Below the pieces are notes generated by a model. That model did no database searches. It worked only from the letters and a program-made list of their open reading frames with translations, and was not told the DNA's origin. Positions 1,631-48,420 of a stretch of 64,000 bases of DNA are shown in pieces. Location of the stretch: the IMG/VR virus record IMGVR_UViG_3300023202_000102, positions 66,700 to 130,699 of that record, one strand, 5' to 3'. The translations under genes were made by a program, and so were the position numbers. The stretch comes from a virus. The stretch's first letter is position 1. Each line of letters starts with the position of its first letter.

Positions 1631-1807
1631 ATGAAGAATGTAAAAATAGTTCCATACAAAAGTGGGTACGCTATCAAGACAAGGACCATACTGATATTTG
1701 TATGGGCGTATGCCAGATGGCAACCTGATCATGGCCCTGACGGTGACATATTAGAGTTTGATACCGAGGAAGATGCAAAGGAATGGATTGATAAGTATGG
1801 TGTTTAA
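1631..1807 (+). CDS. Hypothetical 58-residue protein
   Basis: A short open frame from ATG 1631 to TAA 1805-1807 (58 residues), starting 8 bases after the previous stop. A hydrophobic run near residues 19-28 is followed by an acidic C-terminal helix (EEDAKEW). The stop overlaps the stop of the convergent helicase gene within a shared TTAA. No family is recognised. Confidence 0.55.
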   Translation: MKNVKIVPYKSGYAIKTRTILIFVWAYARWQPDHGPDGDILEFDTEEDAKEWIDKYGV

Positions 1808-4215: not shown

Positions 4216-4264
4216 GAACTTATTCCTGGTCGATTAGCTTTCCTCGTCTGGGAACCATATATCT

Positions 4265-5191
4265 ATGCGAAAAACACTTTCGATATTACTACTGTCTTTG
4301 ATTGGTTGTGATCCAAAGGAGCCGGAACCAAGAATTATTGAGATTCCAGATGTTCATGTTGAATCAAAGATAGACAAAGAACCTAAAGAGGTCAAAGAAA
4401 CTCTGCTGGACAGGTCTGTTCTTATCAAGAAGTATGGAGAAGTTCTCGATGCTTTCGTTGAAGAACAGCTCATGTTTGATGAGCCAATTCGCAACACTGA
4501 AGTTGGCCAAGAGGATGGAGTTTTGCGTGGTAAGTGGGCTAGTGCCTGGCGGCGTGGAGCTTGGCGCTATTCGTATCGAGGGATATGGTACTACACAAGG
4601 ACACAGGATTTCAAGCCCGCCCCTCCTCAGGTTTGTGCAGACTTCGTTATTGATACGCTTGATCGTACTGGTGGAAACTGGTGGTACAAGGATGGAACTA
4701 AACATGTTTGGAAAGGTTATCGTACTGACAACAACTCCTTTTCGGACTTTGTAAAGTCACATGATTGCGGAGTTGGTAAGGATGATGAACCGGTAGCCTG
4801 TTACCACAGAAGGGTAACGGATTTAATTTCAGTGCTTTTACAGCACCCAAAGTATTTTGAAGTCTTGTATGATAAGAAAGAGTTGGGAGCCAGAGTAGGT
4901 TCGAATATTCAGCGTTATAGTACGTTCAAGGAACTGGATGTACAGATGGGAGACATTGTATTCATTTATGGTGAGCTTCCAGGCAGGGGAAATCATTGGC
5001 ACTCCTTTGTTATCTATGGCTTTGATGAGGAGCGAGATGACTGGGAGCTTGTTGGTAATTCAGCTATCATTGCTAAGCGCTGGCTTACAACAGAAGGAAG
5101 AAGAACGCCACGCCGAAAGGTGTGGTATGTTTTCCGGCCAACAGATGAGCTACTCCACCGCATCCAAGAGAACCAACCTCTAGGAGAATGA
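4265..5191 (+). CDS. Lipoprotein with NlpC/P60-like cysteine peptidase domain
   Basis: A 308-residue protein. It begins with a signal peptide and lipobox (SLIGC, Cys15) followed by Asp16, a residue that in enterobacteria keeps lipoproteins in the inner membrane. The C-terminal half has the order Cys124 (PQVCADF), His244/His246 (GNHWHSF) and Asn265 (LVGNS), with a GDIVFIYG strand between, which fits an NlpC/P60 or CHAP-type papain-like fold. A role in cell-wall cleavage or in blocking superinfection at the membrane is inference. The ubiquitin-like gene follows after 1 base, suggesting co-translation. No strong SD is seen before the start. Confidence 0.6.
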   Translation: MRKTLSILLLSLIGCDPKEPEPRIIEIPDVHVESKIDKEPKEVKETLLDRSVLIKKYGEVLDAFVEEQLMFDEPIRNTEVGQEDGVLRGKWASAWRRGAWRYSYRGIWYYTRTQDFKPAPPQVCADFVIDTLDRTGGNWWYKDGTKHVWKGYRTDNNSFSDFVKSHDCGVGKDDEPVACYHRRVTDLISVLLQHPKYFEVLYDKKELGARVGSNIQRYSTFKELDVQMGDIVFIYGELPGRGNHWHSFVIYGFDEERDDWELVGNSAIIAKRWLTTEGRRTPRRKVWYVFRPTDELLHRIQENQPLGE

Positions 5192-10414: not shown

Positions 10415-10770
10415 TGCCGTATAAGACAAAGGGACCTACCCTAGATGATTTGAAGAAGGTCCGTGAAAAAGTTAGGCCTATTGAGGTGACAGTTGAGAGT
10501 GGTTCTCGTGAAGATCTTGAGCGTGCTTTGAGAACGTTCAAGAGAATATTCCAGAATGAGAGAGTCATTGGACAACTCAAGGAGAAGTCAACTTACGAAA
10601 AGCCAAGCGAGAAGAAGCGCAGGAAACGCCGTGAGGCCTGCAACCGTAGACTTATGGCTGAAAGAAGAGAGCGCATGATTAAGTCTGGCGAGTGGGATCG
10701 TGTACAGAAAAAGAAGGCGCAACGAAAGATTATCAAGGAAGAGAAGCGAGCCGGAGTATTTGATGACTGA
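10414..10770 (+). CDS. rpsU: Ribosomal protein bS21 homologue with N-terminal extension
   Basis: 118 residues. Residues ~22-95 match bS21: an IEVTVESG strand start, LERALRTFKRIFQ, a YEKPSEKKRRKRREA block and a long Arg/Lys helix. Bacterial bS21 is about 70 residues, so this one has about 20 extra at the N-terminus and a basic C-terminal extension. bS21 sits near the anti-SD end of 16S rRNA on the 30S platform and affects mRNA choice at initiation. Phage bS21 copies are known in huge phages and are thought to replace the host protein. The gene overlaps both neighbours (TAATG and ATGACTGA). Confidence 0.85.
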   Translation: MPYKTKGPTLDDLKKVREKVRPIEVTVESGSREDLERALRTFKRIFQNERVIGQLKEKSTYEKPSEKKRRKRREACNRRLMAERRERMIKSGEWDRVQKKKAQRKIIKEEKRAGVFDD

Positions 10771-13732: not shown

Positions 13733-14434
13733 AAAAGACAACAGTTAAGAAGTTCCTATTCTGATAGGAATGAGGGTGATTTTGATTCCCTCAAAGGTCG
13801 TCAAAAAGTTTGGTGGAAATGTGATTTAGGCCATGAATGGTTAGCAACTATACGGGATCGATTAGATTCTGGAAGTGGCTGTCATGTTTGTTCCGGATAT
13901 TCTGATCAGAAGAAATGTGAATACAATAAAGACAGGACAAAGAAGAGATGTAATTATTGTAGTGATATGAAAAACGTCTCTGAGTTTAGAACCAGAAGAA
14001 GATCTGGAAGCTGGTTAAACTCAATATGTAAAAAATGTGAACAATTACAAGTTGCTCAATACAGGACAATGACACCAGAAGGTATGGTGGCCGAAATAAT
14101 TAGGCGTAAAAAATCACATTGTAAGAAAAACAATATTGAATTTGATTTAACTAAGAAGTTTGTACTTGAAAAACTTAACAATATTGATTGGAAATGTGAG
14201 CTAACCAGACTGCCAATGAGATCCACAAAATCTGATGTTAATGATAGATATCAAGGTTTTCATTTAGACTCTATATCACTTGATAGAATAAATCATGGCG
14301 GAGGTTATACAATGGATAATGTTAGGTTTGTATTAAATCAAGTTAATGTTTTTAGATCTAATGGTGATGATGATAGAATGTATAAAATAGCAGAGGCTTT
14401 ATTATCACACAGAGAAAGTAAGTGTAATGAGTAA
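13733..14434 (+). CDS. HNH homing endonuclease with zinc-finger N-terminus, start codon unclear
   Basis: The coding frame is continuous from the TGA at 13732 to TGA 14434. The first ATG is at 13967, which would give 155 residues and cut off a treble-clef zinc repeat (VWWKCDLGHEW...GCHVCSG) and part of a second knuckle (CNYC). The C-terminal half has the HNH core CELTRLPM, then SLDRINHGGGYTMDNVRFV. I infer that the N-terminal zinc module is real but has lost its own start, or that the nuclease was once fused in frame to the methyltransferase stub. Its stop overlaps the intact methyltransferase gene. Confidence 0.75.
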   Translation, partial: KRQQLRSSYSDRNEGDFDSLKGRQKVWWKCDLGHEWLATIRDRLDSGSGCHVCSGYSDQKKCEYNKDRTKKRCNYCSDMKNVSEFRTRRRSGSWLNSICKKCEQLQVAQYRTMTPEGMVAEIIRRKKSHCKKNNIEFDLTKKFVLEKLNNIDWKCELTRLPMRSTKSDVNDRYQGFHLDSISLDRINHGGGYTMDNVRFVLNQVNVFRSNGDDDRMYKIAEALLSHRESKCNE

Positions 14435-15200
14435 ATTTAGAGTCATTGTTGCTGATTGTCCCTGGCCGTTCTCAGATAAGCTCAGGATGTCCAAGGTGAA
14501 GCGAGGAGCAGATGACAACTATGATGGCATCATGTCATTCAAGGACATCAAAGAACTTGATGTTGAGTCTCTCGCAGATGAAGATTGTGTCTTGGCTTTA
14601 TGGTGTCCATCTTCTATGCTGGTTCAAGGAATTGAGACACTAGAAACTTGGGGTTTCAAATTAAAACAGACACACATTTGGGTGAAAACAAAAAACAAAC
14701 CATTTGATTTTATCAGAAAGTATGTGTCGAGACTTTTCAGGAACCTTGCAAAAGGTGACAGATCGTATTCCGAAGGGCTGAAAGAGCTTGACAAGTTCCT
14801 TTGGGCCAAGGAGAATCAGGAAGCTGAAGAGATTGGAGATCCCGATCCTGAGGGTCCAGATAATATTCTGGCATTCGGAATGGGACACCTGTTCCGGCAA
14901 ACCCATGAGATTGTTCTCATTGGAGTTCGCGGAAAAGTACACAAGCATCAGAAGAACAAGGCCCAGCGCTCTGTTCATTTCTATCCGGTAACGAAACATT
15001 CGGCTAAACCCGAGGCGTTACAGGACATGTTGGAAGAGATATTTCCAGGCGGCAAGCGCCTGGAGATGTTTGCACGAAGGGACCGTAATGGCTGGACGTG
15101 CATTGGAAATCAATGTCCAAGCTCATATGGAGAGGACATTAATGATAGCATAAATAGGTTACAAGACCATGAGAACACTAGTACTAGACAAGCAGTATAG
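14427..15200 (+). CDS. MT-A70-family N6-adenine methyltransferase
   Basis: 257 residues. Motif IV is DCPW (residues 10-13) instead of the usual DPPW. The C-terminal family block KPEALQDMLEEIFPGGKRLE, then MFARRDRNGW and CIGNQ, is intact and forms the SAM-binding part. Family members methylate N6 of adenine in DNA or RNA; in phages the usual role is DNA modification against restriction. A broken paralogue N-terminus lies 760 bases upstream beyond an HNH gene. The Cys-for-Pro change in motif IV may lower activity or alter the target. Confidence 0.88.
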   Translation: MSKFRVIVADCPWPFSDKLRMSKVKRGADDNYDGIMSFKDIKELDVESLADEDCVLALWCPSSMLVQGIETLETWGFKLKQTHIWVKTKNKPFDFIRKYVSRLFRNLAKGDRSYSEGLKELDKFLWAKENQEAEEIGDPDPEGPDNILAFGMGHLFRQTHEIVLIGVRGKVHKHQKNKAQRSVHFYPVTKHSAKPEALQDMLEEIFPGGKRLEMFARRDRNGWTCIGNQCPSSYGEDINDSINRLQDHENTSTRQAV

Positions 15201-15705
15201 GCCGATCTCATTTGTTGGATACAGACGAATGATTAAGCATGTTGCCAAGGGAAAGGTAGATATTCTTTCTCGCTGGGACGGTGTGTCTTTTTATAATGGT
15301 CAGGACCTACCGGCAATTATTCGCCTGAAGAGTTACGTTAGAAAGAAGCCCTTACTTCCAAGGTTCAACTTCCGTGGTGTATTTCGTAGGGATTTCTTTA
15401 CCTGTCAGTACACTGGTGAGATTTTGCACCCATCAAAGCTCACTGTTGATCACGTTGTTCCAAGGGCTGCTGGTGGTAAATCTACCTGGGAAAACTGCGT
15501 TACTGCTTCACTTGAAGTGAATGCAGCCAAGGGTAATAGAACCCCAGAGGAGGCTGGCCTCAAGCTGCTCAATGAGCCAAAAGCTCCTAAGGATCAGCTT
15601 GCTTTGGAGTACGCTGTGATGCAGTATATTCATGATGATTGGGAGATGTATTTTCCTGGAATCGTGCGTAGGTGTCGTACCACAGGTGACAAAATAGCCT
15701 CCTAA
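15169..15705 (+). CDS. HNH endonuclease (HNH_5-like)
   Basis: 178 residues. The N-terminal VLDKQYRPISFVGYRRMIK and KGKVDIL, then CQYTGEILHPSKLTVDHVVP, RAAGGKSTWENCVTA and the KGNRTPEEAGLKL tail, match a widespread stand-alone HNH family. DHVVP contains the catalytic His. Unlike the intron/intein-linked HNHs nearby it has no zinc-finger DNA-recognition module, so it may serve phage DNA processing. It overlaps the methyltransferase gene by 32 bases. Confidence 0.88.
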   Translation: MRTLVLDKQYRPISFVGYRRMIKHVAKGKVDILSRWDGVSFYNGQDLPAIIRLKSYVRKKPLLPRFNFRGVFRRDFFTCQYTGEILHPSKLTVDHVVPRAAGGKSTWENCVTASLEVNAAKGNRTPEEAGLKLLNEPKAPKDQLALEYAVMQYIHDDWEMYFPGIVRRCRTTGDKIAS

Positions 15706-20690: not shown

Positions 20691-21143
20691 GTGGCCTCAC
20701 AAAAGAAACGATGCACTAAGTGTGACAGGCTTAAAGATGTCAAGCACTTTCACAGTAACGGTAACCGCAAAGGTTTGGGTGCATACAGATGCCGCTGCAA
20801 GCTTTGTGTAAGAGAAGTTAAGATGAAGAATTGGCATAAGAGGGTGTATCTAAGTTCTTTAGATAGAGCAAACAGGTTCTCTTTGCCGTTTGACATCACC
20901 CCTGAGTTTGTTCTTTCATTGTACCGAAAGCAAAATGGCAAGTGCTTTTGGTTTGGTGTTGACTTAAAATCATCACGTAATCAGAAAGATCCTCAGATAC
21001 CAACCCTTGATAGAATAGACTGCAAGGGCGGATATACAAAGAACAATGTTGTACTAGCATGTTTCGCTGCCAACATTGGAAGAAACACGACGACACCAAG
21101 AAGGTTCAAAGAGTTCGTTAAACTTGTCAAGGGGAGTGTATGA
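20691..21143 (+). CDS. HNH endonuclease with zinc-finger N-terminus
   Basis: 150 residues from GTG 20691; no SD is visible and no ATG is available. The N-terminal CTKCDRLKDVKHFH and CRCKLC form a zinc knuckle as in other phage HNH proteins. The nuclease core is PTLDRIDCKGGYTKNNVVLA, close to the HNH at 13733 in layout. A free-standing homing endonuclease is the likely identity. The stop overlaps the next ATG. Confidence 0.82.
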   Translation: MASQKKRCTKCDRLKDVKHFHSNGNRKGLGAYRCRCKLCVREVKMKNWHKRVYLSSLDRANRFSLPFDITPEFVLSLYRKQNGKCFWFGVDLKSSRNQKDPQIPTLDRIDCKGGYTKNNVVLACFAANIGRNTTTPRRFKEFVKLVKGSV

Positions 21144-34400: not shown

Positions 34401-35252
34401 ATGAAAGTAATAGCATCGCTCTTAGAAGAGCGTGATACATCAAACGTTGACATGACTTTGTCTGTCAGCAAGTACAAAACATTTGATGAAGACTCAGGCG
34501 GGTGCAGAAAGAAATTTAAGTTCTGCTATATCGACAAGCTTCCAAGAATTGATAGAGACTTTCATATCTTTGGAAAGTACTTACATCAAGTTCTTGAGAA
34601 CTTCCATAACATTCTTCTAGAGGATCCTTCCAGGGAAGAAGACTGGAAATCGGCTCTGAAGGAGGCGCATGAAGCTGCCTACGAAGAGTATCAAGACCAG
34701 CTGACTGGCGATCAGTGCGCTGAGGCTGATCAGATTGTTGATGAATATAAAGAGATTCTTGAAGAAGAAGGTCTACCAAATGTTATTGCTAATGAGAAAT
34801 CATTTTACATCAATCTAAATGATAAGGTTTTGTTGAATGGTTTTATTGATAGGATCCAAATAGATCCGGATGGTGTTCTTCATGTTGCTGATTACAAGAC
34901 AACAAAGAACCCAAAGTATTTGAAAGACTTCTTTCAGTTAATAACTTACTGTTATGCAATGATGTTAGAAGACCCTGATTTAAAAAGAATCAGAGCATCA
35001 TTTATTTTGTTACGTCATTCCTTTGATTACATGACAGAGGAATATACCAGAGAAGAAGTGATAACCGTGGCCGAGAAGTTTCTCAAGAAGGCCTATGAGA
35101 TTGAAGATGAAAAGCTGTTTAGAGCAAACCCCCAGTTCCTATGTAAGTTCTGTGACTTTATAGAACACTGTGATGAGGGTAAGAAATTCATTGGAAGAAA
35201 AACCAGGAAGAGCAAAGATAAAAAGCCGGTTGTCGGCGTTAGGAAATGGTAA
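34401..35252 (+). CDS. RecB/Cas4-like PD-(D/E)XK exonuclease with Fe-S cluster ligands
   Basis: 283 residues. The nuclease core is GFIDRI (Asp150) and VADYKTTK (Asp164, Lys166) with a following Gln motif. Cys35, then Cys248, Cys251 and Cys257 at the C-terminus, match the AddB/Cas4 pattern for a 4Fe-4S cluster that pins the fold. Likely role: processing DNA ends in recombination. The stop overlaps the trigger-factor start. Confidence 0.9.
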   Translation: MKVIASLLEERDTSNVDMTLSVSKYKTFDEDSGGCRKKFKFCYIDKLPRIDRDFHIFGKYLHQVLENFHNILLEDPSREEDWKSALKEAHEAAYEEYQDQLTGDQCAEADQIVDEYKEILEEEGLPNVIANEKSFYINLNDKVLLNGFIDRIQIDPDGVLHVADYKTTKNPKYLKDFFQLITYCYAMMLEDPDLKRIRASFILLRHSFDYMTEEYTREEVITVAEKFLKKAYEIEDEKLFRANPQFLCKFCDFIEHCDEGKKFIGRKTRKSKDKKPVVGVRKW

Positions 35253-36547
35253 TGGAAGCACTAGAAACACCAGTAGAAACACAGGATATTGAGTATCCAA
35301 TCTTACGAATAGAAAACCCAGAGTACTGCATGCTTAAGGTGCATTACGAGGCAGATCCTGAGGTTGTTGAATCTAAGCTAGATGAAGCTATTGGAGCATT
35401 GCGCAACATGCGTGTACCCGGCTTTCGACCAGGCAAGGCTCCTGACTATGCTATCAAGGCTAAGCTGAAGCCTCAGCTTAATCAATACATTGCTCGTGAG
35501 ATGACTACTCATGCTATTGATGATATTGTGTTCGAGACCAATATCGAGCCAATTGGTATGCCTAAGTTTGAGAACATTAAGGTTAGTGGTAAAAAGTTCT
35601 CTTGTGATATTGAGGTTTGTTCTAAGCCGGAGTTTGAGCTGCAGGATTTCAAATTTGATATTCCTAAACCCCCTCAGGAGAGTGATGAGGAGTCTCTTGC
35701 AGAGAAGTCTCTATTCAACCTGCGTCAGCGTGTAGGTGAGATTGAACCTTATGAGGAAGGCGATGTGGTTGAGCTTGGCGATCAGGTGACCTTATCTTTT
35801 ACAGGCACCATTGATGGTGAAGAGTTTGATGGCTCTGTGGTTGAGGGAGAGATGTACCAGGTTGGCACTAACCGCTGGCCTGAGTTTGATAACTACATCA
35901 TTGGAATGCAGGCTGATGAGACTCGTGAGTTTGAACTCACCTTCGATGACTCTGCGCAGGGGTTGGTTCCAGAAGAACTTCAGGACAAGACTGCAAAGTT
36001 CTCTGTGACCATTCATATGGGAACAAAACGCAAGCCACACGAACTTAATGAAGAGTTTTATCAGAAGATGGGAGTGGAAAGTCATGATCAGATCATGGAC
36101 AAGCTACGTACAATCTCTCGTGATTCTCTCAAGAGATCAGAGCTGGAAGCGATTCGTTCTCAGGCTGCAATCAAATTGGTCGAGGCTCACGACTTCAGGG
36201 TGCCTCAGTTCTTGATCGACTCCGAGGCCAAGAGCATCGTTGGTCAATCTGGAATTGACTTCAATAAACTCAATGATGAAGAGAAGTCAAACATAACTGA
36301 GCAGGCAGAGAAGAACGTGAAACTGACTCTTATTTTGGATTCAGTACGAGAGAGTGAGCCGGATTCTGTTTTGAATGACAATGAGGCACAGCAACATCTT
36401 GCAAAGCACCTCCAGTCACAGGGACAAGACCCACAGCAAATCTTTGGTAACAAAAGTTTTGGTCCACAACTTGGAGTAATGCTCAACTCTATCAAAGATG
36501 AGTTCACTCTTCAGTGGATATCTGATCAGGCTAACATCATAGAGTAA
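35252..36547 (+). CDS. tig: Trigger factor (ribosome-associated chaperone)
   Basis: 431 residues from ATG 35252, which has AGGA at the right distance; ATG 35246 is too close to it. The N-terminal domain has the ribosome-docking signature GFRPGKAP (57-64). A FKBP-like domain (~176-256) has GDQVTLSFTGTIDGEEFDGS. The C-terminal helical arms follow (~260-431). Trigger factor binds uL23 at the exit tunnel and shields new chains. Length equals bacterial trigger factor. Phage copies are rare to my knowledge; this suggests capture from a host. Confidence 0.93.
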   Translation: MEALETPVETQDIEYPILRIENPEYCMLKVHYEADPEVVESKLDEAIGALRNMRVPGFRPGKAPDYAIKAKLKPQLNQYIAREMTTHAIDDIVFETNIEPIGMPKFENIKVSGKKFSCDIEVCSKPEFELQDFKFDIPKPPQESDEESLAEKSLFNLRQRVGEIEPYEEGDVVELGDQVTLSFTGTIDGEEFDGSVVEGEMYQVGTNRWPEFDNYIIGMQADETREFELTFDDSAQGLVPEELQDKTAKFSVTIHMGTKRKPHELNEEFYQKMGVESHDQIMDKLRTISRDSLKRSELEAIRSQAAIKLVEAHDFRVPQFLIDSEAKSIVGQSGIDFNKLNDEEKSNITEQAEKNVKLTLILDSVRESEPDSVLNDNEAQQHLAKHLQSQGQDPQQIFGNKSFGPQLGVMLNSIKDEFTLQWISDQANIIE

Positions 36548-37204: not shown

Positions 37205-37593
37205 TGAAGATTGCAGATCACTTAGATGATTTCCTTGACTGCCTAGACATTGAGTCTTCTCGTGTTGAACCAACATGTCTCTCTGATATTGTGGGCTTTG
37301 TCAAGACAAGGCGTGAGGTGAACCCAATTACTATGTTTGCAAGGAACAATGGTGATTCATCCAACTATCTTTTCGATCTATGCGAAGCCTTCATAGAAAA
37401 TATTGATGAGGGAACCGATCTATACCTCGCCGCTTTGTTCGTCATCGCTAGCGAGCTAGATGATGATAGATACACTCGTTTGGCGTCGAGAGCCTCTCGT
37501 GAGTTGCAAGAATATCGCTGGTCAGCTGCGATGGCTGCCAGTTACTTGCTCTCTAAAGAGGTGAATAATGCGTCCGTATGTATCTCTGCATAA
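37204..37593 (+). CDS. Hypothetical 129-residue protein
   Basis: Acidic, helical protein directly upstream of dnaE with a 26-base overlap. No motif recognised. Confidence 0.6.
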   Translation: MKIADHLDDFLDCLDIESSRVEPTCLSDIVGFVKTRREVNPITMFARNNGDSSNYLFDLCEAFIENIDEGTDLYLAALFVIASELDDDRYTRLASRASRELQEYRWSAAMAASYLLSKEVNNASVCISA

Positions 37594-40297
37594 CCATACC
37601 ACCGGGTCGTTAGGTGGCAGCATCATCACGCCAAAGGCGTTGATTGATGCTACAAAGGAAGCTGGACAGACAGCCGTGGCCGTAACAGACCACGGCTCGA
37701 TGTCTAAGCTCTGGGAGACTTACAAGGCAGCAAAGAAAGCTGGTGTTAAGCTTATTGCTGGTTGTGAGTGTTACTTCGTAGATAACGCAGATGATGATGA
37801 AGACACAACCCTTCGTCACATTGTTCTTCTAGCGAAGAATGCCAAAGGTTACAAGAACCTTCTTACTCTAAATAAGCGGGGGTATGATAAGAAAACAGTT
37901 GCCTTCAAGCGTGCAATCCCAAGAGTGGATTGGAAGATGCTTGAAGAGTTCAGCGAAGGATTGATTTGTACATCTGCTTGTGGCAATGGAATCGTTGCCC
38001 AGCACATCATGTTGGACCAGCCCAGTGAGGCTGTGGCTGCTGCTATCAGACTCCAGAAGATTTTTGGCGATGACTTTGTTTTTGAGCTTCAGCCGCACAA
38101 CCTTCAGCGCAGAGCTAGCGCTTACTCCGGGGCCGTAAACCAACAGAAAATCAACATTGCCCTGAAAAAGCTCAGTGAGCAGTTGGGCATCAAATGTATT
38201 GTGGCTACCGATGCCCATTACATCAAGAAAGAAGATCACAAACTGCATGATGTTTACATCTGCAATGCTTCTGGCCAACCCATCAACTCCGGTGCCCGCC
38301 TCCGTTACGACAAGCCCGAGTTTTACGTAAAGAACTCTGACCAGGTGTATGAGCACTTCACTCGTCATATAAAGGTGTGGGGAGAAGAGTTTGTTGAGTC
38401 TCTGTTCACCAATGCTGTGGAGCTTGCAGATCGCTGCGAGATGGCTGACTGGATTGACCCAACAGTCTCAACTGGTGAGAAGTCACAGCTGCCAGAGTTT
38501 CCATACAAGGAAGAACCCGATTATGACAACTTCAAGACCTGGCAAAACACTTCTAAGGACAGCTTGGTTTACAATGCTAAAGCTGATGAGGACGCCCAGT
38601 TCTATCGTTACCGCTCCGAGAAGTATCTGAACGATAAGATCTCTCTTGGTAAAATACCAAAAGAAGACAAAGACGAATCCATTAAGCAGATGTTGGAAGA
38701 GTTCGATGTGTTTGAGTATCGTGGCTTCAGCTCCTATATGCTCATCACTGCTGATTTCCTTAACTGGGCTCGCAACAATGACATTGCCATTGGTCCTGGC
38801 CGTGGCTCTGTTGGTGGTTCTCTCACAGCTTATGTTCACAGGATTCACCAGGCGTATCCAAAGAAATACGGACTCATCTTTGCTCGCTTCTTAAACAAGT
38901 ACAAAGAAGCATTCCCTGACATTGACAATGACATCGCTCCGTCAGGTCGTGCGAAGCTACATGATTACCTACGCCGTAAGTATGGCGAGGCGAATGTTGC
39001 TCATGTCTCTAACATCAACACCATCACCCCAAAGGTGTACGCCAGAGACATCGCTCGTGTCTTTGAGTTTGGTGGTATGGGCCGCTCCATGGCTGCAGAG
39101 ATTGGTAACAACATTGCTGACTCTATCCCTGCCGACATCAAGAACATCAAACAAGCTCTGACCGAAGCCCCGCTATTTGCTGAGTACGCCAAGCAGTACC
39201 CTGAGCTGGCTCAGTACGCTGACCTCTGTGGCCTGCCGAGAGCATGGTCTACCCACGCTGGTGGCATTGTGATCTCCAAGAGACCGCTGGAAGGGCTGGT
39301 TCCACTACGCCGCGATACCAATGGTGCCCTCGTGCTTGAGTACGACAAGGAGATAGCAGAAGAGAATGGTCTGGTAAAGATCGATACTCTTGGCCTTGAG
39401 ACCTTGGACATCATTGGTGAGACGTATAGGTTAATCAAAGAAAATGGTAAGGTAGTTCACGAAGGTGAGTTCGATTACGAACTCATGGATGAACCTGCAT
39501 ACGATCTTGTTGGCACAGGCGATACGTTCGGTGTGTTTCAGCTTGGAAGTACGGCGGTCAATGTGTGTAAGAAGGTGAAGCCAAAGAACGTTGAAGATCT
39601 GGCTCTTATCTCATCACTCGTTCGTCCATCATCTAAGGATTCTATTCCTGAGGTGATTGACATTCGAAACGGTAAGAAGGAAGTTAAACTTCCGCACGAA
39701 TCATTGAATCGTTCCTTTGGTAACACCTACGGTATCGGACTCTTTGAAGAGTCCTTGTTATTCCTGGCCCAGGATGTAGCTGGTTGGGATCTTCATGATG
39801 CGGACAAGCTGCGTAAGCTTACCAAAGAGAAGGGTAAGAACCCTAAAAAGGTAAAGCAGTGGAGGGATGAGTTCGTTGAATCTTCAGTAAAGAATGGTTT
39901 TACTAAAGAGTTTGCTGAGGGTGTGTGGTCAGATTACGTTGAGTCCTTTGGTGGTTATGGCTTCAATCGGTCGGTGTACTTTTTCGAATCTGTTGATATA
40001 TATACTTCTGAAGGAAAGTTCATAACTTCAAAACCAATACAAGATGTAAAACCTGGAGAGTTTGTTCGGTCAAGGGATGAAGAAACGGGTAGTGATATTT
40101 ACATTGAGGTGATTGATAATCACGATCATGGAGAACTTGATGTGGTTGAGGTTGAGCTTGATACTGGAGAAAAAGTTAAATGCACAATGAATCACAAGTT
40201 CAGGACAGAGACTGGGGAGATGTTACCACTTCATCAGATTCTAAAGGACGGTCAGTCTATCGTTGTAAGCGATGTCATAAAAGATTCTGGAATTTAG
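37568..40297 (+). CDS. dnaE: DNA polymerase III alpha, N-terminal part, fused to split-intein N-half
   Basis: 909 residues, of which 1-801 are polymerase. The PHP domain has LHNHTTGS (His8, His10), VTDHGS (Asp41, His42) and ATDAHY, so its metal site looks largely intact. The catalytic palm has GPGRGSVGGS (409-418) and FPDIDNDI with Asp451 and Asp453. The extein stops at GYGFNR in the conserved GFNKSHA motif and is followed by a 108-residue intein N-half. The remaining 463 polymerase residues are encoded at 41439-42830, so trans-splicing is required for active enzyme. Joined length is 1264 residues, near normal for DnaE. Confidence 0.95.
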   Translation: MRPYVSLHNHTTGSLGGSIITPKALIDATKEAGQTAVAVTDHGSMSKLWETYKAAKKAGVKLIAGCECYFVDNADDDEDTTLRHIVLLAKNAKGYKNLLTLNKRGYDKKTVAFKRAIPRVDWKMLEEFSEGLICTSACGNGIVAQHIMLDQPSEAVAAAIRLQKIFGDDFVFELQPHNLQRRASAYSGAVNQQKINIALKKLSEQLGIKCIVATDAHYIKKEDHKLHDVYICNASGQPINSGARLRYDKPEFYVKNSDQVYEHFTRHIKVWGEEFVESLFTNAVELADRCEMADWIDPTVSTGEKSQLPEFPYKEEPDYDNFKTWQNTSKDSLVYNAKADEDAQFYRYRSEKYLNDKISLGKIPKEDKDESIKQMLEEFDVFEYRGFSSYMLITADFLNWARNNDIAIGPGRGSVGGSLTAYVHRIHQAYPKKYGLIFARFLNKYKEAFPDIDNDIAPSGRAKLHDYLRRKYGEANVAHVSNINTITPKVYARDIARVFEFGGMGRSMAAEIGNNIADSIPADIKNIKQALTEAPLFAEYAKQYPELAQYADLCGLPRAWSTHAGGIVISKRPLEGLVPLRRDTNGALVLEYDKEIAEENGLVKIDTLGLETLDIIGETYRLIKENGKVVHEGEFDYELMDEPAYDLVGTGDTFGVFQLGSTAVNVCKKVKPKNVEDLALISSLVRPSSKDSIPEVIDIRNGKKEVKLPHESLNRSFGNTYGIGLFEESLLFLAQDVAGWDLHDADKLRKLTKEKGKNPKKVKQWRDEFVESSVKNGFTKEFAEGVWSDYVESFGGYGFNRSVYFFESVDIYTSEGKFITSKPIQDVKPGEFVRSRDEETGSDIYIEVIDNHDHGELDVVEVELDTGEKVKCTMNHKFRTETGEMLPLHQILKDGQSIVVSDVIKDSGI
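39971..40294 (+). mobile_element. Split intein, N-terminal half (IntN of DnaE)
   Basis: 108 residues starting with Ser (SVYFFESVDIYTSEGK), then QDVKPGEFV and block B KCTMNHKFRT, ending at TAG 40295-40297 without endonuclease or C-terminal blocks. Ser instead of Cys as the first residue is uncommon. The 3' third is also coding in another frame for the homing endonuclease. Confidence 0.9.
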
Positions 40298-41208
40298 ATA
40301 AAGCATCAGATCATATTGAATGTTGTAAAATAAAATACGATCAGTTACCAAAAGGTATTGACTTTGTAGTTTGCAATGTATGCGGATGGCACGCGAAAAA
40401 GCTTGGTGCTCATTTAAAAAATGAGCACGGAATAAATTCAGCAGATTATGATGGACAAATTGTTTGCGAGTCTTCTAAGAAGAAATACGAATCAGTTGCA
40501 AAAGAAAATGGCAATTGGATAGAGAGAGCAAAAGAAAATGGAGAAGACCTTTCTGATTACAAACAAAAGATGGGCCAAGCTGTTAAAGAGTCAATACTAT
40601 CTAATCCATCTGAAAGAAAGCGTCGAGCATCTGTGATGGGAGCTGTCAATAAGACAGATCTGATGCGGAAGAAATCATCCGAGACGGCAATTAAAACATC
40701 AGCCAGAAAAGACATACAAGAGAAAAGATCAGCTCAGTTAAAGAAGTGGCGTGATGAAAACCCAGATGATTTTTACAATAAGTGTATAAAGAAAATGATT
40801 GAAACTTATAATAGCAAACCCGAAGCATTGTTATTTAAGATAGTTTCTGAAATTGACGGGTATTCATTTAAAAGAAGTCAATTTATGAAGTCCAATACAT
40901 TCATTTCTAAAACCAAAAGAAAACAGGTAGATATAGCTGATAAATCTAAAAGGGTATATGTAGAGTTTGATGGTAAATTACATTTTAAAAATACTAAATT
41001 CGATCAGTTGGAAATTAATAAGCTCAAAGATAAGTTGCTTGATGAACACATCATCAAACATAGATGGATTTTAATACGAGTATCATACGATCAGTTTTCA
41101 TATCGTAAATCAGATTATGGATTTAAGAAAGACTGTCTTGATAAAGTGTTTGAAATTCTAAACAACCCAACACCTGGTGTTTATAAAATAGGAGAAAGTT
41201 ATGTATAA
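40180..41208 (+). CDS. Vsr-like (EDxHD/PD-(D/E)XK) homing endonuclease inside the split dnaE
   Basis: 342 residues from ATG 40180, the only start in frame, with a GGAG SD; it overlaps IntN by 118 bases. The N-terminus has zinc-finger pairs (YRCKRCHKRF...CC and CNVCGWHAKKLGAHLKNEHG). A basic helical DNA-binding middle follows. The C-terminal nuclease has QVDI (Asp251), VYVEFDGKLHF (Glu262, Asp264, His268) and a late WILIRVS strand, as in Vsr-related homing enzymes known from fractured phage genes. It probably spreads the split-intein locus. Confidence 0.85.
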   Translation: MHNESQVQDRDWGDVTTSSDSKGRSVYRCKRCHKRFWNLDKASDHIECCKIKYDQLPKGIDFVVCNVCGWHAKKLGAHLKNEHGINSADYDGQIVCESSKKKYESVAKENGNWIERAKENGEDLSDYKQKMGQAVKESILSNPSERKRRASVMGAVNKTDLMRKKSSETAIKTSARKDIQEKRSAQLKKWRDENPDDFYNKCIKKMIETYNSKPEALLFKIVSEIDGYSFKRSQFMKSNTFISKTKRKQVDIADKSKRVYVEFDGKLHFKNTKFDQLEINKLKDKLLDEHIIKHRWILIRVSYDQFSYRKSDYGFKKDCLDKVFEILNNPTPGVYKIGESYV

Positions 41209-41272
41209 AGAATCAAAATTGGTGAAAGTTTTAACATTTGATAACAAACACGGAATGCAGATGGAGATTTAA
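41201..41272 (+). CDS. Mini-ORF of 23 residues
   Basis: ATG 41201 overlaps the endonuclease stop and is preceded by a good SD (AGGAGAAAG). It encodes MYKESKLVKVLTFDNKHGMQ plus three residues. Its TAA overlaps the next mini-ORF start. May only serve translational coupling. Confidence 0.35.
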   Translation: MYKESKLVKVLTFDNKHGMQMEI

Positions 41273-41331
41273 TGAGTGTTTCACATTTTATTCAAGAGAT
41301 GGTAAGTGAAGCTATGAGGTCAGCTAGATGA
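41272..41331 (+). CDS. Mini-ORF of 19 residues
   Basis: ATG 41272 in a TAATG junction encodes MSVSHFIQEMVSEAMRSAR; its TGA overlaps the ATG of the IntC-DnaE gene (ATGA). GAGG within it is the SD for that gene. Probably a coupling device. Confidence 0.35.
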   Translation: MSVSHFIQEMVSEAMRSAR

Positions 41332-41438
41332 CCAATATCAAATCAGTAACACCAGTTGGAAAGGCGCAAACATATGATTTAGAGGTAGCTCATCCTGATC
41401 ACCAGTACTATCTCAGCAATGGAATGCTTACGAGTAAC
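41328..41438 (+). mobile_element. Split intein, C-terminal half (IntC of DnaE)
   Basis: 37 residues: block F YDLEVAHPDHQYYLSNG and block G ending GMLTSN before Ser+1. The penultimate residue is Ser, not His. Length is typical of naturally split inteins with a small C-half. Confidence 0.9.
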
Positions 41439-42830
41439 TCACACGCTACCCTTTACTCAATGATTTCCCTCCACACAGGATACCTCAAAGCGAATTACCC
41501 AATTGAATTTCTGGTAGCTAACCTTATCTCTGAGGTGAAGTCCAACGCCAAACAGGCCAAGGATAATATCCTCAAGATCAAAACTGAGCTTCGTAATCGT
41601 AAGGTCAAGATTGTCCCTCCGGATATCAATACCTCTGGGCTGTCTTGGAAGATCAAGGATGAACACACTTTAATGACCGGCCTTGACTCATTGAAGTACA
41701 TGGGTGGGGATGCAATTCCTGAGCTGATTGCTAAGCGTCCATTCGTTTCTTTTCAAGATCTTGTATACCGTACAGAGTCTAGGAAGGTTCGATCTCCAAG
41801 CATTCAGTCAATGGCAGCTTCTGGTTCTTTAGATTCGTTTGAGCTGGAGCGTCACCTGATGTTTTACTACGCATCAGATTTCAGGGCCAAGCTTCGCGCT
41901 CATATGGAGAAGCTTGATAGAAAGATTATTCGAGAGTGGAGTAAAGAGAACAATTATTCCAAAGCCAAAGATGATGTTGGCAATGAGTTCTGGGTGGCGG
42001 AAGAGTCACCAGATGAGCTTATTGACCCACCAAAACCAACTGAGCAGGATAAGGCTGAGTGGCTGGCTGAATTCAAGTACCCATTCCCTGAAGAGGGTAC
42101 CATTGTTGAGGGCAAGGATGGTCCTGTAGAGATTCGCAAATGGACTATCCAAGAGCAGTTCGCCATGGAAGATTACTACATGGGTGAAGGTATCTCTGGA
42201 ACCATCTTCGATAGGTATCCTGATTTCTTCCATCCAAAAAGAACCGTTCCATTTGCTGCTCTAAAAGAGATGTTTCCATGGAAGCATCATTCTGATGATG
42301 AACGTACTAATCGAAAGGCAAATACCCACTATCTTGGTAACCAAAAGATTCGTCCACTAGAAGCTGTGATTACATCTATGTTTGTATTCACAGTGAAGAA
42401 GGAGGACTCTCCCATCTTTGGCCAGGAGATGGCGCGTATTACTTTGCAAGATCCTTGGGGCGATGATGCGTCGTTGTTGTGCTTCCCCGAGGCATGGGAG
42501 ATGATGAAGCAGAGGATTGAGCGAGAACTTTCTGGCGGAAAACAAGCGGTTGAGCCGGGTGTTGCAATTAGGTTCTTGGGTTCTTTTCAGTGGGAGAATG
42601 AAGCATCAACATCTTTCGTACTCTCCGATATATTGGCTTATAAGGCCCCACCAAGCATGCCGGAGGATAGAGCTTCTCGCAAAGTGAAAATGCCTAGAGC
42701 AAATAAGCTCAAGGCAGAGGAAGCTTCAACTTTGGATCAAGGGGACCTTCTTGAACGGTTGGAAAATGAAATGTTAGATGATGGCTATTCATTTATCAAT
42801 GACCCAACTGATGACGATATAGAGAGTTAA
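41328..42830 (+). CDS. dnaE: Split-intein C-half fused to DNA polymerase III alpha C-terminal part
   Basis: 500 residues. The first 37 are IntC; residue 38 is the Ser of SHATLYSMISLHTGYLKANY, the direct continuation of the GFNR end of the N-part. The polymerase part (463 residues) covers the rest of the fingers region, helix-hairpin-helix-like segments and an OB-like region, ending acidic. It can only act after splicing to the product of 37568. GAGG SD is present before ATG 41328. Confidence 0.95.
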   Translation: MTNIKSVTPVGKAQTYDLEVAHPDHQYYLSNGMLTSNSHATLYSMISLHTGYLKANYPIEFLVANLISEVKSNAKQAKDNILKIKTELRNRKVKIVPPDINTSGLSWKIKDEHTLMTGLDSLKYMGGDAIPELIAKRPFVSFQDLVYRTESRKVRSPSIQSMAASGSLDSFELERHLMFYYASDFRAKLRAHMEKLDRKIIREWSKENNYSKAKDDVGNEFWVAEESPDELIDPPKPTEQDKAEWLAEFKYPFPEEGTIVEGKDGPVEIRKWTIQEQFAMEDYYMGEGISGTIFDRYPDFFHPKRTVPFAALKEMFPWKHHSDDERTNRKANTHYLGNQKIRPLEAVITSMFVFTVKKEDSPIFGQEMARITLQDPWGDDASLLCFPEAWEMMKQRIERELSGGKQAVEPGVAIRFLGSFQWENEASTSFVLSDILAYKAPPSMPEDRASRKVKMPRANKLKAEEASTLDQGDLLERLENEMLDDGYSFINDPTDDDIES

Positions 42831-44322: not shown

Positions 44323-44746
44323 AGAAAAAGTTGATGAACTGCTGGGTAACTTCCAGCAGAAATACCACCTCGTTTTGAATGAGCTGGATTCACTACATAA
44401 AGGATCTTTTGACGAGGAAGAGGCATCGCAGATGGCGGCCCTTTGCCTGCTTTCACAAGCTGCTTTGCTTGCTGATTTAGCAGCTGCTGACCTCCGATCT
44501 AGATCTCTCAAGCGTGATATAGATTTCGCTAAGGCTACAGCTTATGCAGAGATTAAGTCCAATCCTCCCGATGGGAAGAAGGTGACTGAAGCTGCACTGG
44601 CTAACCTTATAGTAAAGGACGATGAAGTTCGGCGCATAACCAAAGAGCAAACAGAAGCTGAAAGGGATTATAAACACCTTGCTAACATTCACGCTCTACT
44701 TAAAGAAGCGCACATAACATTCCGAGGAATTAAAAAAGGAGTATAA
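44303..44746 (+). CDS. UvsY-like recombination mediator candidate
   Basis: 147 residues, fully helical, Ala- and charge-rich, of the same size as T4 UvsY (137). It lies directly upstream of the uvsX/recA homologue with a TAATG overlap. UvsY loads UvsX on SSB-coated ssDNA, and phages with UvsX and a gp32-like SSB normally need such a factor. Sequence similarity to UvsY is not convincing by eye; the call rests on size, helix content and context. Confidence 0.45.
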   Translation: MTEPISEEKVDELLGNFQQKYHLVLNELDSLHKGSFDEEEASQMAALCLLSQAALLADLAAADLRSRSLKRDIDFAKATAYAEIKSNPPDGKKVTEAALANLIVKDDEVRRITKEQTEAERDYKHLANIHALLKEAHITFRGIKKGV

Positions 44747-45696
44747 TGCCATCGAAGAAGACAACTAAGAAAATAGATATTGCCAATCTAGTAAAAAAGG
44801 CACAGGGCAGATTCGACAAGAAGAAAGCACATCTTGCAGCCCGAATGACAGCGGGAGATCAGATCGTTCTCTCACAAGATCCTTCAGATTATATATACTC
44901 AGAACAGATTGATAAGTTCTGGAAACCACTGACTGGAGTAATGGGTGGACCTTACGGACGCATTTGGCAGTTCGCAGGAAAGCCAGATAGTGGAAAGTCA
45001 ACAGCAGCAATGTTGTTCATGAAGGCCGCGCAAGAACAAGAAGCAATCGTAGTACTTTGGGATACAGAGGGTAAGTTCGATTCTTCAAGATTTAGGGACC
45101 AGCTGAAGGGTGACCCATCACAGATTCCTGTTGCTCCATCGAGAAACATCACAGAGGGAGTTCAACAGGTTGTTGCTTATGTGAAGACAATTAAGGAGAT
45201 GGATCCTGATCAGAAGATTCTTCTTGTCTGGGACTCCGTAGGAGCTTCCATCAATTCAGCGGAAGATGAGGAGAATGATGATTACTCAAAGCAGCCGGGT
45301 GTTACAGCTAAAGAGGTCTCTTGGGCAATCAGAAGATTTAATCAGCTCATGGAGAAATTCAGAGATGCTAATGGTAACTACACTATTGGAGTTCTTTGCG
45401 TGAACCAGGTTTACGCAAACATTGGTTCTGTTGGTAACAAGCAGAAAGGTGGAGCTGAACTTGAATACCTTAGCTCCCTAATTATCGAAATGTCGAGGAA
45501 GCAAACGCTGACGAGAACTAGGAATAAGCAGAAGGTTAAGTACGGAATCAAGACCGTGGCAAGGGTGAAGAAAAACCACCTTCATGGCGGTCAGGATTGT
45601 GTTGCCGAGCTTGACTTGATTGTGTCCGCAGATGGTATTGAGCTGGCTGATAAGATCAAGGAAATTGTCCCTGATATCGAAGGGTTAGAGGAGTAA
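44746..45696 (+). CDS. RecA/UvsX-like recombinase
   Basis: 316 residues. Walker A is GKPDSGKST (78-86), with LWDTEGKFD, then LLVWDSVGAS (Walker B) and a VLCVNQVYAN strand with Gln. Shorter than bacterial RecA and lacking its C-terminal domain, as in UvsX-type phage proteins. It catalyses homologous pairing and strand exchange. Cotranscribed with SSB and near EndoVII. Confidence 0.93.
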   Translation: MPSKKTTKKIDIANLVKKAQGRFDKKKAHLAARMTAGDQIVLSQDPSDYIYSEQIDKFWKPLTGVMGGPYGRIWQFAGKPDSGKSTAAMLFMKAAQEQEAIVVLWDTEGKFDSSRFRDQLKGDPSQIPVAPSRNITEGVQQVVAYVKTIKEMDPDQKILLVWDSVGASINSAEDEENDDYSKQPGVTAKEVSWAIRRFNQLMEKFRDANGNYTIGVLCVNQVYANIGSVGNKQKGGAELEYLSSLIIEMSRKQTLTRTRNKQKVKYGIKTVARVKKNHLHGGQDCVAELDLIVSADGIELADKIKEIVPDIEGLEE

Positions 45697-47382: not shown

Positions 47383-48420
47383 ATGAACACTTTAGAGGCA
47401 TGCGATATACTAGGAGTCGCAGCAGGGGCTTCGAAAGATGAAGTCAAATCAGCCTTCAAAAGGATGGCTGTTAAGTACCACCCAGATAGAAACAAATCTG
47501 AAGGTGCGGAAGAGAAGTTCAAAGAGATCAATGAGGCATTCCAGCTAATTGATAAGTATGGAACATCTGGAAGTCACAGCTCCAGTACAAATCAGTATAG
47601 CTCTTATGCTGCAGCAGATCATCTTGCGGAAGAACTCAGACGAAAGATGGAAGAAACTTTTGGGTTTGGGAAGTCTACAAACCCATTTGTTAACCTAAAG
47701 CCAGAGCCAGTAATCGAGACTGTTCAGATATCTTTCAAAGAGTCTGTGCTTGGCTTGGAAAAAGAAGTACCAATTAAAAGAAGAGAAAGATGTGGTACAT
47801 GTAAGGGCACAAAGAAAGTCTACATCAACAAGAAGATGTGTCCGAAGTGTGGTGGTAACAAGTACAGATCTTATGGTGGAAATAAAAGTGGCAAGAAACT
47901 TCCATGTGTAACCTGTGATGCTACTGGATATGTTGGAGATACTAAGCCATGCGCTACCTGTATGGGGTTGGGAACAAAAACAAATGAACATATATTGAAA
48001 GTAAAGATTCCTGCAAGATCAAAACACTCAGAAAGAATAGTAGTTAATAATGCAGGTCACTGGCAGGTTGGAGAAGTGTTTGGAAATGTAGTTATTGTTG
48101 TTGGTGTTTCAGAAGATATGGACATGCACCTTGACGGGAGTGACGTTATATCAGTAATAGAACTATCTTTGCTAGAAGCATTGCAAGGTGCGAAGAAAAG
48201 ACTGCGTACAATCAATGGCGAGAGAACATTGGCATTTAAGCCAATGACCAAGAACAGAGATACGATAAGAGTTAAAGGTTTCGGAGTGCCCCCAGATGGA
48301 GCACACGTCTTTGTAATAAATGTAAATTACCCGGAAGATGCGGACGGATTGATTGAATATCTTTCTGGTAACGATGGGTATCAAGAGTCAGTCGAAAACG
48401 ATTCGGAACCAAATGATTAG
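47383..48420 (+). CDS. dnaJ: DnaJ/Hsp40 co-chaperone
   Basis: 345 residues. The J domain (1-60) has the HPD motif (33-35). The long Gly/Phe region is replaced by a Ser-rich stretch. Four CxxC zinc repeats (CGTCKG, CPKCGG, CVTCDATG, CATCMGLG) and the two beta substrate domains follow. It would recruit host DnaK; no phage DnaK is in the window. With sHSP and trigger factor it makes a third chaperone. Confidence 0.95.
   Translation: MNTLEACDILGVAAGASKDEVKSAFKRMAVKYHPDRNKSEGAEEKFKEINEAFQLIDKYGTSGSHSSSTNQYSSYAAADHLAEELRRKMEETFGFGKSTNPFVNLKPEPVIETVQISFKESVLGLEKEVPIKRRERCGTCKGTKKVYINKKMCPKCGGNKYRSYGGNKSGKKLPCVTCDATGYVGDTKPCATCMGLGTKTNEHILKVKIPARSKHSERIVVNNAGHWQVGEVFGNVVIVVGVSEDMDMHLDGSDVISVIELSLLEALQGAKKRLRTINGERTLAFKPMTKNRDTIRVKGFGVPPDGAHVFVINVNYPEDADGLIEYLSGNDGYQESVENDSEPND

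What the first reader, a model, noticed from the sequence alone, without database searches (positions are those of the whole stretch)
37568..42830. Fractured dnaE: split intein plus free-standing Vsr-like homing endonuclease
The polymerase stops at GYGFNR, continues as a 108-residue intein N-half, and resumes as a 37-residue intein C-half followed by SHATLYS in a second gene. A 342-residue zinc-finger/Vsr-like nuclease lies between. This matches the fractured-gene layout described from metagenomes for gp41, NrdJ and others, here in DnaE. The site is within a few residues of the cyanobacterial split DnaE intein, but the nucleophile is Ser1 and the penultimate residue is Ser.
Basis: partly seen in the sequence, partly recalled or inferred. 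Interest (0 to 1): 0.85.

Follow-up and report, generated by a model that had tools for sequence, protein, structure and literature searches.

The report
Split intein overprinted by homing nuclease
A phage's DNA-replication polymerase gene is broken in two by a self-splicing protein element whose coding sequence also carries, in another reading frame, the start of the nuclease gene that probably spreads it, and related phages show the same site in continuous, split, fully overlapped and decayed forms, which suggests how split proteins arise.

Summary
dnaE is one gene in two pieces: 801 aa plus a 108-aa IntN (37568-40297), and a 37-aa IntC plus 463 aa (41328-42830). The halves meet at the same profile position. 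It is no assembly error: 29 divergent members carry the split intein at the same GFN[x]|SH site, and a relative 74% identical across the junction has the empty site.

Its start codon, ribosome site and first ~39 codons are overprinted on IntN in another frame. That frame is open in 18/18 overlapping loci; in 9/11 others a synonymous change of the catalytic His codon (CAC to CAT) stops it at codon 6. In six further loci dnaE is continuous and the whole nuclease (273-347 aa) is overprinted inside a cis intein, with 0 stops where 12-18 are expected.

The nuclease has a Vsr-like fold. The intein has moved between unrelated dnaE genes. Its nearest solved relatives are cyanobacterial split DnaE inteins, inserted 4 residues away. 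Trans-splicing and homing are inferred. The kind (fractured genes) is known; the overprinting is a new variant.

The parts
37568..39970 (+). DnaE N-extein, 801 aa: PHP, NTPase/palm and finger domains, ends GYGFNR
39971..40297 (+). IntN, 108 aa (Ser1, block B CTMNH with His75) plus stop codon
40166..40169 (+). GGAG, Shine-Dalgarno-like site of the nuclease gene, inside intein codons for TGE
   Evidence: similar site in most overlapping relatives
40180..41208 (+). Vsr-like nuclease gene, 342 aa: zinc fingers (C29, C32, H45, C49; C65, C68, H78, H83), helical linker, Vsr-like core (D251, E262, D264, H268, D284)
40180..40297 (+). overprinted stretch: IntN C-terminal part and nuclease N-terminus in two frames
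40193..40195 (+). CAC codon of the block-B catalytic His; CAT here would put a stop at codon 6 of the nuclease frame
   Evidence: CAC in 18/18 overlapping loci, 2/11 others
41201..41272 (+). small ORF (23 aa) overlapping the nuclease stop; no known function, not conserved in length
41272..41331 (+). small ORF (19 aa) whose stop overlaps the IntC start (ATGA), possible translational coupling
41316..41320 (+). GAGGT, Shine-Dalgarno-like site of the IntC gene
41328..41438 (+). IntC, 37 aa (block F YDLEV, ends LTSN); start codon 37 codons before the junction in most relatives
41439..42830 (+). DnaE C-extein, 463 aa (begins SHATLYS; helix-hairpin-helix domain) plus stop codon

Best explanation
This is a mobile split intein in a phage replicative polymerase gene. 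Shown from sequence: dnaE is broken at a conserved site (GYGFNR|SHA) into two genes that carry complementary halves of a class 1 (Hint) intein with its catalytic residues intact (Ser1, block B TxxH, block F Asp, terminal Asn, +1 Ser). Shown: a zinc-finger, Vsr-fold nuclease gene sits in the intein and shares its first 118 nt with the IntN coding sequence in another frame; its predicted start codon and ribosome site also lie inside IntN. Inferred: the halves are made as separate proteins, IntN and IntC associate, and trans-splicing yields a 1264-aa DnaE. Inferred: the nuclease cuts intein-free dnaE at or near this site, so that repair copies intein and nuclease together, which is how the element spread between unrelated dnaE genes. 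Inferred order of events: the nuclease gene entered an intein out of frame. While the intein frame stays free of stops the intein remains cis; once stops arise and an internal start codon before IntC is used, the gene becomes fractured. The nuclease can later be replaced or deleted while the split persists.
For: Seamless extein junction. 29-member all-split clade at the same site. Empty site in a DnaE 74% identical across the junction (L112), and 46 of 80 listed DnaE relatives have an uninterrupted site. Horizontal movement: twelve clade members have only 29-33% extein identity to the window but 50-58% intein identity. Overprinting: the MH..SQ-type frame is open in 18/18 overlapping loci, with CAC for the block-B His; 9/11 loci without the overlapping nuclease have a stop at codon 6 (CAT), and the other two are deletion remnants, L003 and L048 (nominal hypergeometric 55/10,015,005, rows are related). 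Fully overprinted cis inteins: L017, L018, L019, L081, L198, L199 have 0 stops in the intein frame where 12-18 are expected from the nuclease protein and its own codon usage. Nuclease-frame identity is 49-58% against 29-36% for the insert read in the intein frame, with changes concentrated at nuclease codon position 3. The cis intein model is a confident Hint domain (pLDDT about 90) with a 246-aa low-confidence insert. Nuclease model: Vsr is the top fold hit. Decay series: L003, L048 and L025 keep nuclease ends only; L029 and L047 have none. Only one DnaE in the record.
Against: No experiment: neither splicing nor cleavage was observed. Relative frames differ: the nuclease is +2 to the intein in window-type loci and +1 in the cis-overprinted loci, so the cis forms are not direct point-mutation ancestors of the window form; an indel or a separate insertion is needed. 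The general third-base conservation in the overlap is only slightly raised (0.52 against 0.48). Deep branches of the 139-146-column trees are weakly supported. The Vsr fold match has a moderate E-value (9.9e-3, probability 1.00) and there is no sequence-level match to a Vsr or EDxHD structure.
Confidence: 0.86

Rival explanations
1. An ordinary fractured gene: the nuclease is a free-standing gene between the halves and the N-terminal overlap is incidental, with the true nuclease start downstream of IntN.
For: Residues 1-23 of the nuclease model have pLDDT below 50. Some relatives (L023, L028, L032) start the nuclease after the IntN stop.
Against: 18/18 open frames against 9/11 closed in controls, CAC codon bias, conserved ATG or GTG with a Shine-Dalgarno-like site in intein codons, and zinc-finger cysteines 29 and 32 inside the overlap. 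Full-length overprints exist in six cis loci.
Confidence: 0.08
2. The dnaE gene is a decaying pseudogene, or the halves work as a non-covalent two-subunit enzyme without splicing.
For: No splicing data; some phage relatives have very heavily interrupted dnaE (L038).
Against: Both halves have long intact frames, and splice-site residues are conserved across the clade (IntC ends TSN|SH in all clade members read). No second DnaE is in the record. Conserved start codons and frames point to selection.
Confidence: 0.04
3. The interruption is removed at RNA level (group I or II intron) or bypassed by frameshifting.
For: Phage genes are often interrupted by introns that carry nuclease genes.
Against: No Rfam match even at E 1. 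The flanks of the insert encode Hint halves that match solved inteins, and the empty site joins exactly at the intein boundaries.
Confidence: 0.01

Closest known systems
Fractured genes with split inteins and Vsr-like homing endonucleases (Dassa et al. 2009, doi 10.1093/nar/gkp095; paper not held, content from own knowledge, cited in PMC3229294 and PMC7090010)
   Same: Host enzyme broken in two by a split intein with a nuclease gene, often of Vsr-like type, between the halves, in phage-like DNA.
   Different: Here the nuclease gene is overprinted on IntN, and relatives carry it fully overprinted within a cis intein. Whether DnaE was among the published loci could not be checked.
Cyanobacterial split DnaE inteins (Npu, Ssp)
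   Same: Host protein DnaE; closest solved relatives of the intein (E 1.5e-23 against 8e-10 for gp41-1); similar split position; penultimate Ser or Ala instead of His.
   Different: Inserted four residues upstream (Y|CFNK); Cys1; halves not adjacent and no nuclease (own knowledge). Tree join 93/85 only after long-branch references are removed.
ShiLan element: out-of-frame HNH nuclease in a phage methylase (PMC11855218)
   Same: A homing-type nuclease encoded out of frame in a host gene whose own frame stays open.
   Different: HNH rather than Vsr fold; no intein or other splicing element, so the insert stays in the host protein.
AceL NrdHF split class 3 intein (PMC7891396)
   Same: Fractured-gene layout from a phage-like metagenomic contig.
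   Different: GIY-YIG nuclease, class 3 chemistry, ribonucleotide reductase host.
EDxHD homing endonucleases, I-Bth0305I (described in PMC3943268)
   Same: Phage homing endonuclease with an extended DNA-binding region; the conserved E, D, H, D pattern here resembles it.
   Different: No sequence-level match to that structure was found; N-terminal zinc fingers; resides in an intein, not a group I intron.

Membership tests
Class 1 split intein | Hint fold with blocks A, B, F and G in two complementary fragments | tested here: met
   Profile of fused halves matches solved DnaE inteins at 1.5e-23; alignments show TxxH, D, N and +1 S
Class 1 split intein | Cys or Ser at position 1 | tested here: met
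   Ser1 in the window; C, S or T in relatives
Class 1 split intein | Protein trans-splicing | not testable with these tools
   needs expression of both fusions
Fractured gene (Dassa type) | Conserved enzyme broken by a split intein with a nuclease gene between the halves | tested here: met
Fractured gene (Dassa type) | Nuclease gene free-standing, apart from the intein coding sequence | tested here: not met
   118-nt overlap with IntN in another frame, with signs of selection
Vsr-like / EDxHD homing endonuclease | Vsr-like catalytic fold with conserved acidic and His residues | tested here: met
   Fold hits 1cw0 and 1vsr, probability 1.00 and 0.99; D251, D264, H268, D284 invariant in 26 sequences
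Vsr-like / EDxHD homing endonuclease | Cuts the intein-free allele and drives its own copying | not testable with these tools
   indirect only: empty sites and intein transfer
Cyanobacterial DnaE split intein allele | Insertion between Y and CFNK of DnaE | tested here: not met
   Inserted after GYGFNR, four residues downstream
Cyanobacterial DnaE split intein allele | Common ancestry of the intein sequence | tested here: inconclusive
   Best PDB matches; tree 93/85 not starred; grouping with the window clade not rejected, p 0.465
ShiLan-type out-of-frame nuclease insertion | HNH nuclease out of frame, no splicing domain | tested here: not met
   Vsr fold and a complete Hint domain

The most novel reading that the evidence does not exclude
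Out-of-frame overprinting of a homing nuclease on a cis intein is a natural route by which contiguous genes become permanently split, and phage dnaE inteins of this family are the source, or a sister line of the source, of the cyanobacterial split DnaE inteins used throughout biotechnology.
Probability: 0.35. Interest if true: 0.92.

Novelty: new variant of a known kind. Interest (0 to 1): 0.8.

Why it matters
The origin of split inteins is an open question, and this one insertion site offers many of the needed states: empty, cis mini-intein, cis with a fully overprinted nuclease, split with an overlapping, adjacent, swapped or decayed nuclease, and split with none. The overlap ties a catalytic intein codon to the nuclease's reading frame, so past overlap and its loss can be read from a single codon. 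The relatives also supply many new natural split inteins with S, C or T at position 1, close in sequence to the widely used DnaE inteins, for protein-ligation work. If the link to the cyanobacterial inteins holds, their phage origin becomes testable.

Tried and rejected
RNA intron: no Rfam match. Own promoter or terminator for the insert: promoter-like sites do not exceed shuffles (7 against 10.9) and terminator-like sites only slightly (7 against 4.4). Direct search for the nuclease in viral contigs with the window protein alone, and in cultured phages, found nothing; alignments or the DnaE half were needed. PDB sequence search with the nuclease found only zinc fingers. The first hypothesis, that the window form arose from the cis-overprinted form by a single nonsense mutation, was rejected because the relative frames differ (+2 against +1). 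A first tree put the cyanobacterial inteins among long-branch references; it was rebuilt without the longest. Third-base conservation across the whole overlap was a weak test. Dassa et al. 2009 could not be opened. IMG/VR duplicates of one contig under several locus ids were collapsed by hand.

Full report
What is there. The window is positions 66700-130699 of a 193,802-bp virus record. At 37568-42830 lie three open frames on the + strand: DnaE residues 1-801 followed by a 108-residue IntN; a 342-aa ORF; and a 37-residue IntC followed by 463 residues of DnaE. The polymerase profile NF004226 is matched to position 752 by the first and from 752 by the last, so splicing would restore an uninterrupted 1264-aa protein. 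The record holds no other DnaE. The intein halves match curated intein models only weakly, but a profile made from nine related fused halves finds solved DnaE inteins in the PDB at E 1.5e-23.

The same element elsewhere. Searches with DnaE-N, the nuclease and IntN in IMG/VR and in genome contigs gave a clade of 29 members, window included, all split, all at GFN[x]|SH of DnaE. Eighteen carry the overlapping nuclease; four carry it after IntN or close to its end in another relative frame (L023, L028, L032, L040); one has a different 661-aa homing-type nuclease (L027); six have lost it or keep remnants (L003, L025, L029, L041, L047, L048). L003 shows the scar best: the nuclease start and its last residues (GIYRIGDAYGKY) remain around a deletion. 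Position 1 of the intein is S, C or T.

Mobility. A DnaE 74% identical to the window's across the junction has the empty site GYGFNRSHATLYS (L112). Of the 80 best DnaE relatives listed, 46 have the uninterrupted site by a simple motif test. In twelve clade members the exteins are only 29-33% identical to the window's, the same level as in DnaE genes that hold quite different inteins, while the inteins are 50-58% identical. This is the pattern of horizontal movement of the intein.

The nuclease. Twenty-six sequences share D251, D264, H268 and D284, and most share zinc-finger cysteines. The AlphaFold model (mean pLDDT 87.5) has the Vsr mismatch endonuclease as its best PDB match: 1cw0, E 9.9e-3, probability 1.00, and 1vsr, probability 0.99. 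No sequence search reached a Vsr structure, so the assignment rests on fold and residue pattern.

Overprinting in the window type. The nuclease ORF starts at 40180 inside IntN, one base before the TGC codon of block B, and overlaps IntN to its stop at 40297. The overlap does not look incidental. The frame begins MH..SQ or close to it in the overlapping loci. Its Q codon is made of the last base of the block-B His codon and the next two bases, so CAC gives CAA and CAT gives TAA. All 18 overlapping loci keep this frame open; of 11 loci without the overlapping nuclease nine stop at codon 6, and the two that do not are the remnants L003 and L048. The probability of that arrangement if the stops were dealt at random is 55/10,015,005 (hand calculation); relatedness makes this nominal. 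A Shine-Dalgarno-like GGAG lies about ten bases upstream, within codons for TGE of the intein, in most overlapping loci, and zinc-finger cysteines 29 and 32 are encoded within the overlap. The IntC gene has its start 37 codons before the junction in nearly all members, usually with its own ribosome site.

Full overprinting in cis relatives. In L017, L018, L019, L081, L198 and L199 (L201 is a near-identical second contig of L199) dnaE is one continuous frame, the intein at the same site is cis, and the whole nuclease gene of 273-347 codons lies inside it in the +1 frame. Given the nuclease proteins and their own codon usage, 12-18 stops are expected in the intein frame; none is found in any, and none of 3000-5000 simulations per locus had none. 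Among the four compared pairwise (L017, L018, L019, L081) the nuclease frame is conserved (49-58% identity) and the insert read in the intein frame is less so (29-36%); base changes concentrate at nuclease third positions. The L081 intein is modelled as a confident Hint domain with a 246-residue low-confidence insert. So the insert frame appears to be kept open without being kept in sequence. L062 and L070 have lost the nuclease core but keep the intein frame. A precedent for an out-of-frame homing-type nuclease exists in a phage methylase without any splicing element (PMC11855218); I found none inside an intein, within a library that lacks most subscription papers.

Other occupants of the site. 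Further clades have split inteins with DUF559/NUMOD3-type nucleases (L061, L067 and others) or a free-standing LAGLIDADG gene (L075), one has an in-frame insert that looks HNH-like by eye (L100), one is a 130-aa cis mini-intein (L057), one is split with no nuclease (L060). Two cultured Rhodococcus phages, NiceHouse and Francesca, have cis mini-inteins here inside single annotated DnaE genes.

Relation to cyanobacterial DnaE inteins. The fourteen best PDB matches to the fused profile are DnaE inteins, nearly all cyanobacterial (1.5e-23 to 4e-13); gp41-1 follows at 8e-10. A profile of the 29-member clade scores Npu DnaE at 86.8 bits, like some other inteins of the same phage site, against 44.6 for gp41-1. 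In a tree without the longest reference branches the cyanobacterial and phage DnaE inteins lie together, 93/85, and a join with the window clade is not rejected, p 0.465. The insertion sites differ by four residues, so this is a shared-ancestry hypothesis, not membership.

How it most likely works. Trans-splicing of DnaE, and homing by the nuclease into intein-free dnaE, are inferred from anatomy and distribution. The order cis, overprinted, split, nuclease loss is the simplest reading, but the two overlap types have different relative frames (+1 and +2), so at least one frame change or a second insertion separates them.

Verdict. The observation and most of the interpretation stand. The kind, fractured genes, is known. 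The overprinting of intein and homing nuclease, and the series of states at one site, are a new variant with real bearing on how split inteins arise.

Noticed in passing
window 1804-4215 (-): RecD/Dda-like helicase ORF (803 aa) with a complete cis intein with LAGLIDADG-like features at TVHK|SQGTQ.
   Followed up: no
window 35246-36547, 44746-45696, 47383-48420: Phage-encoded trigger-factor-like protein, RecA and DnaJ-like protein around the dnaE locus (by eye).
   Followed up: no
window 13967-14434, 15169-15705, 20691-21143: Several small HNH-like nuclease ORFs (by eye).
   Followed up: no
L108 (reverse strand of G001:1-17000); L038: A dnaE broken into at least four pieces, with split inteins at two or more sites and free-standing nucleases among the pieces; the C-terminal piece was not found.
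   Followed up: partly
L006 5989-9427 and 10580-10750: A second split intein in the same dnaE at GPARG|SAAGS, so three pieces; the C-extein frame is broken again near 10630-10715 for an unknown reason.
   Followed up: partly
L024 2248-6315: A second, cis intein with LAGLIDADG-like features in the same dnaE at GPGRG|SVGGS.
   Followed up: no
L112-L157 junctions: In empty sites the residue before the insertion point is M, V, I or C in 29 of 46; none of these occurs in the occupied 29-member clade. It could be a splicing requirement, a resistance allele or shared descent.
   Followed up: partly
L075 3796-4806: A free-standing LAGLIDADG gene between split intein halves of dnaE.
   Followed up: partly
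L109 (G007:4292-16737): In the L081 phage the N-terminal part of dnaE lies about 11.6 kb from the rest, so there may be another fracture upstream.
   Followed up: no
L041, L042, L043: The same intein on contigs binned as Thioploca, an archaeon and Paracaedibacteraceae; these may be phage contigs in the bins.
   Followed up: no
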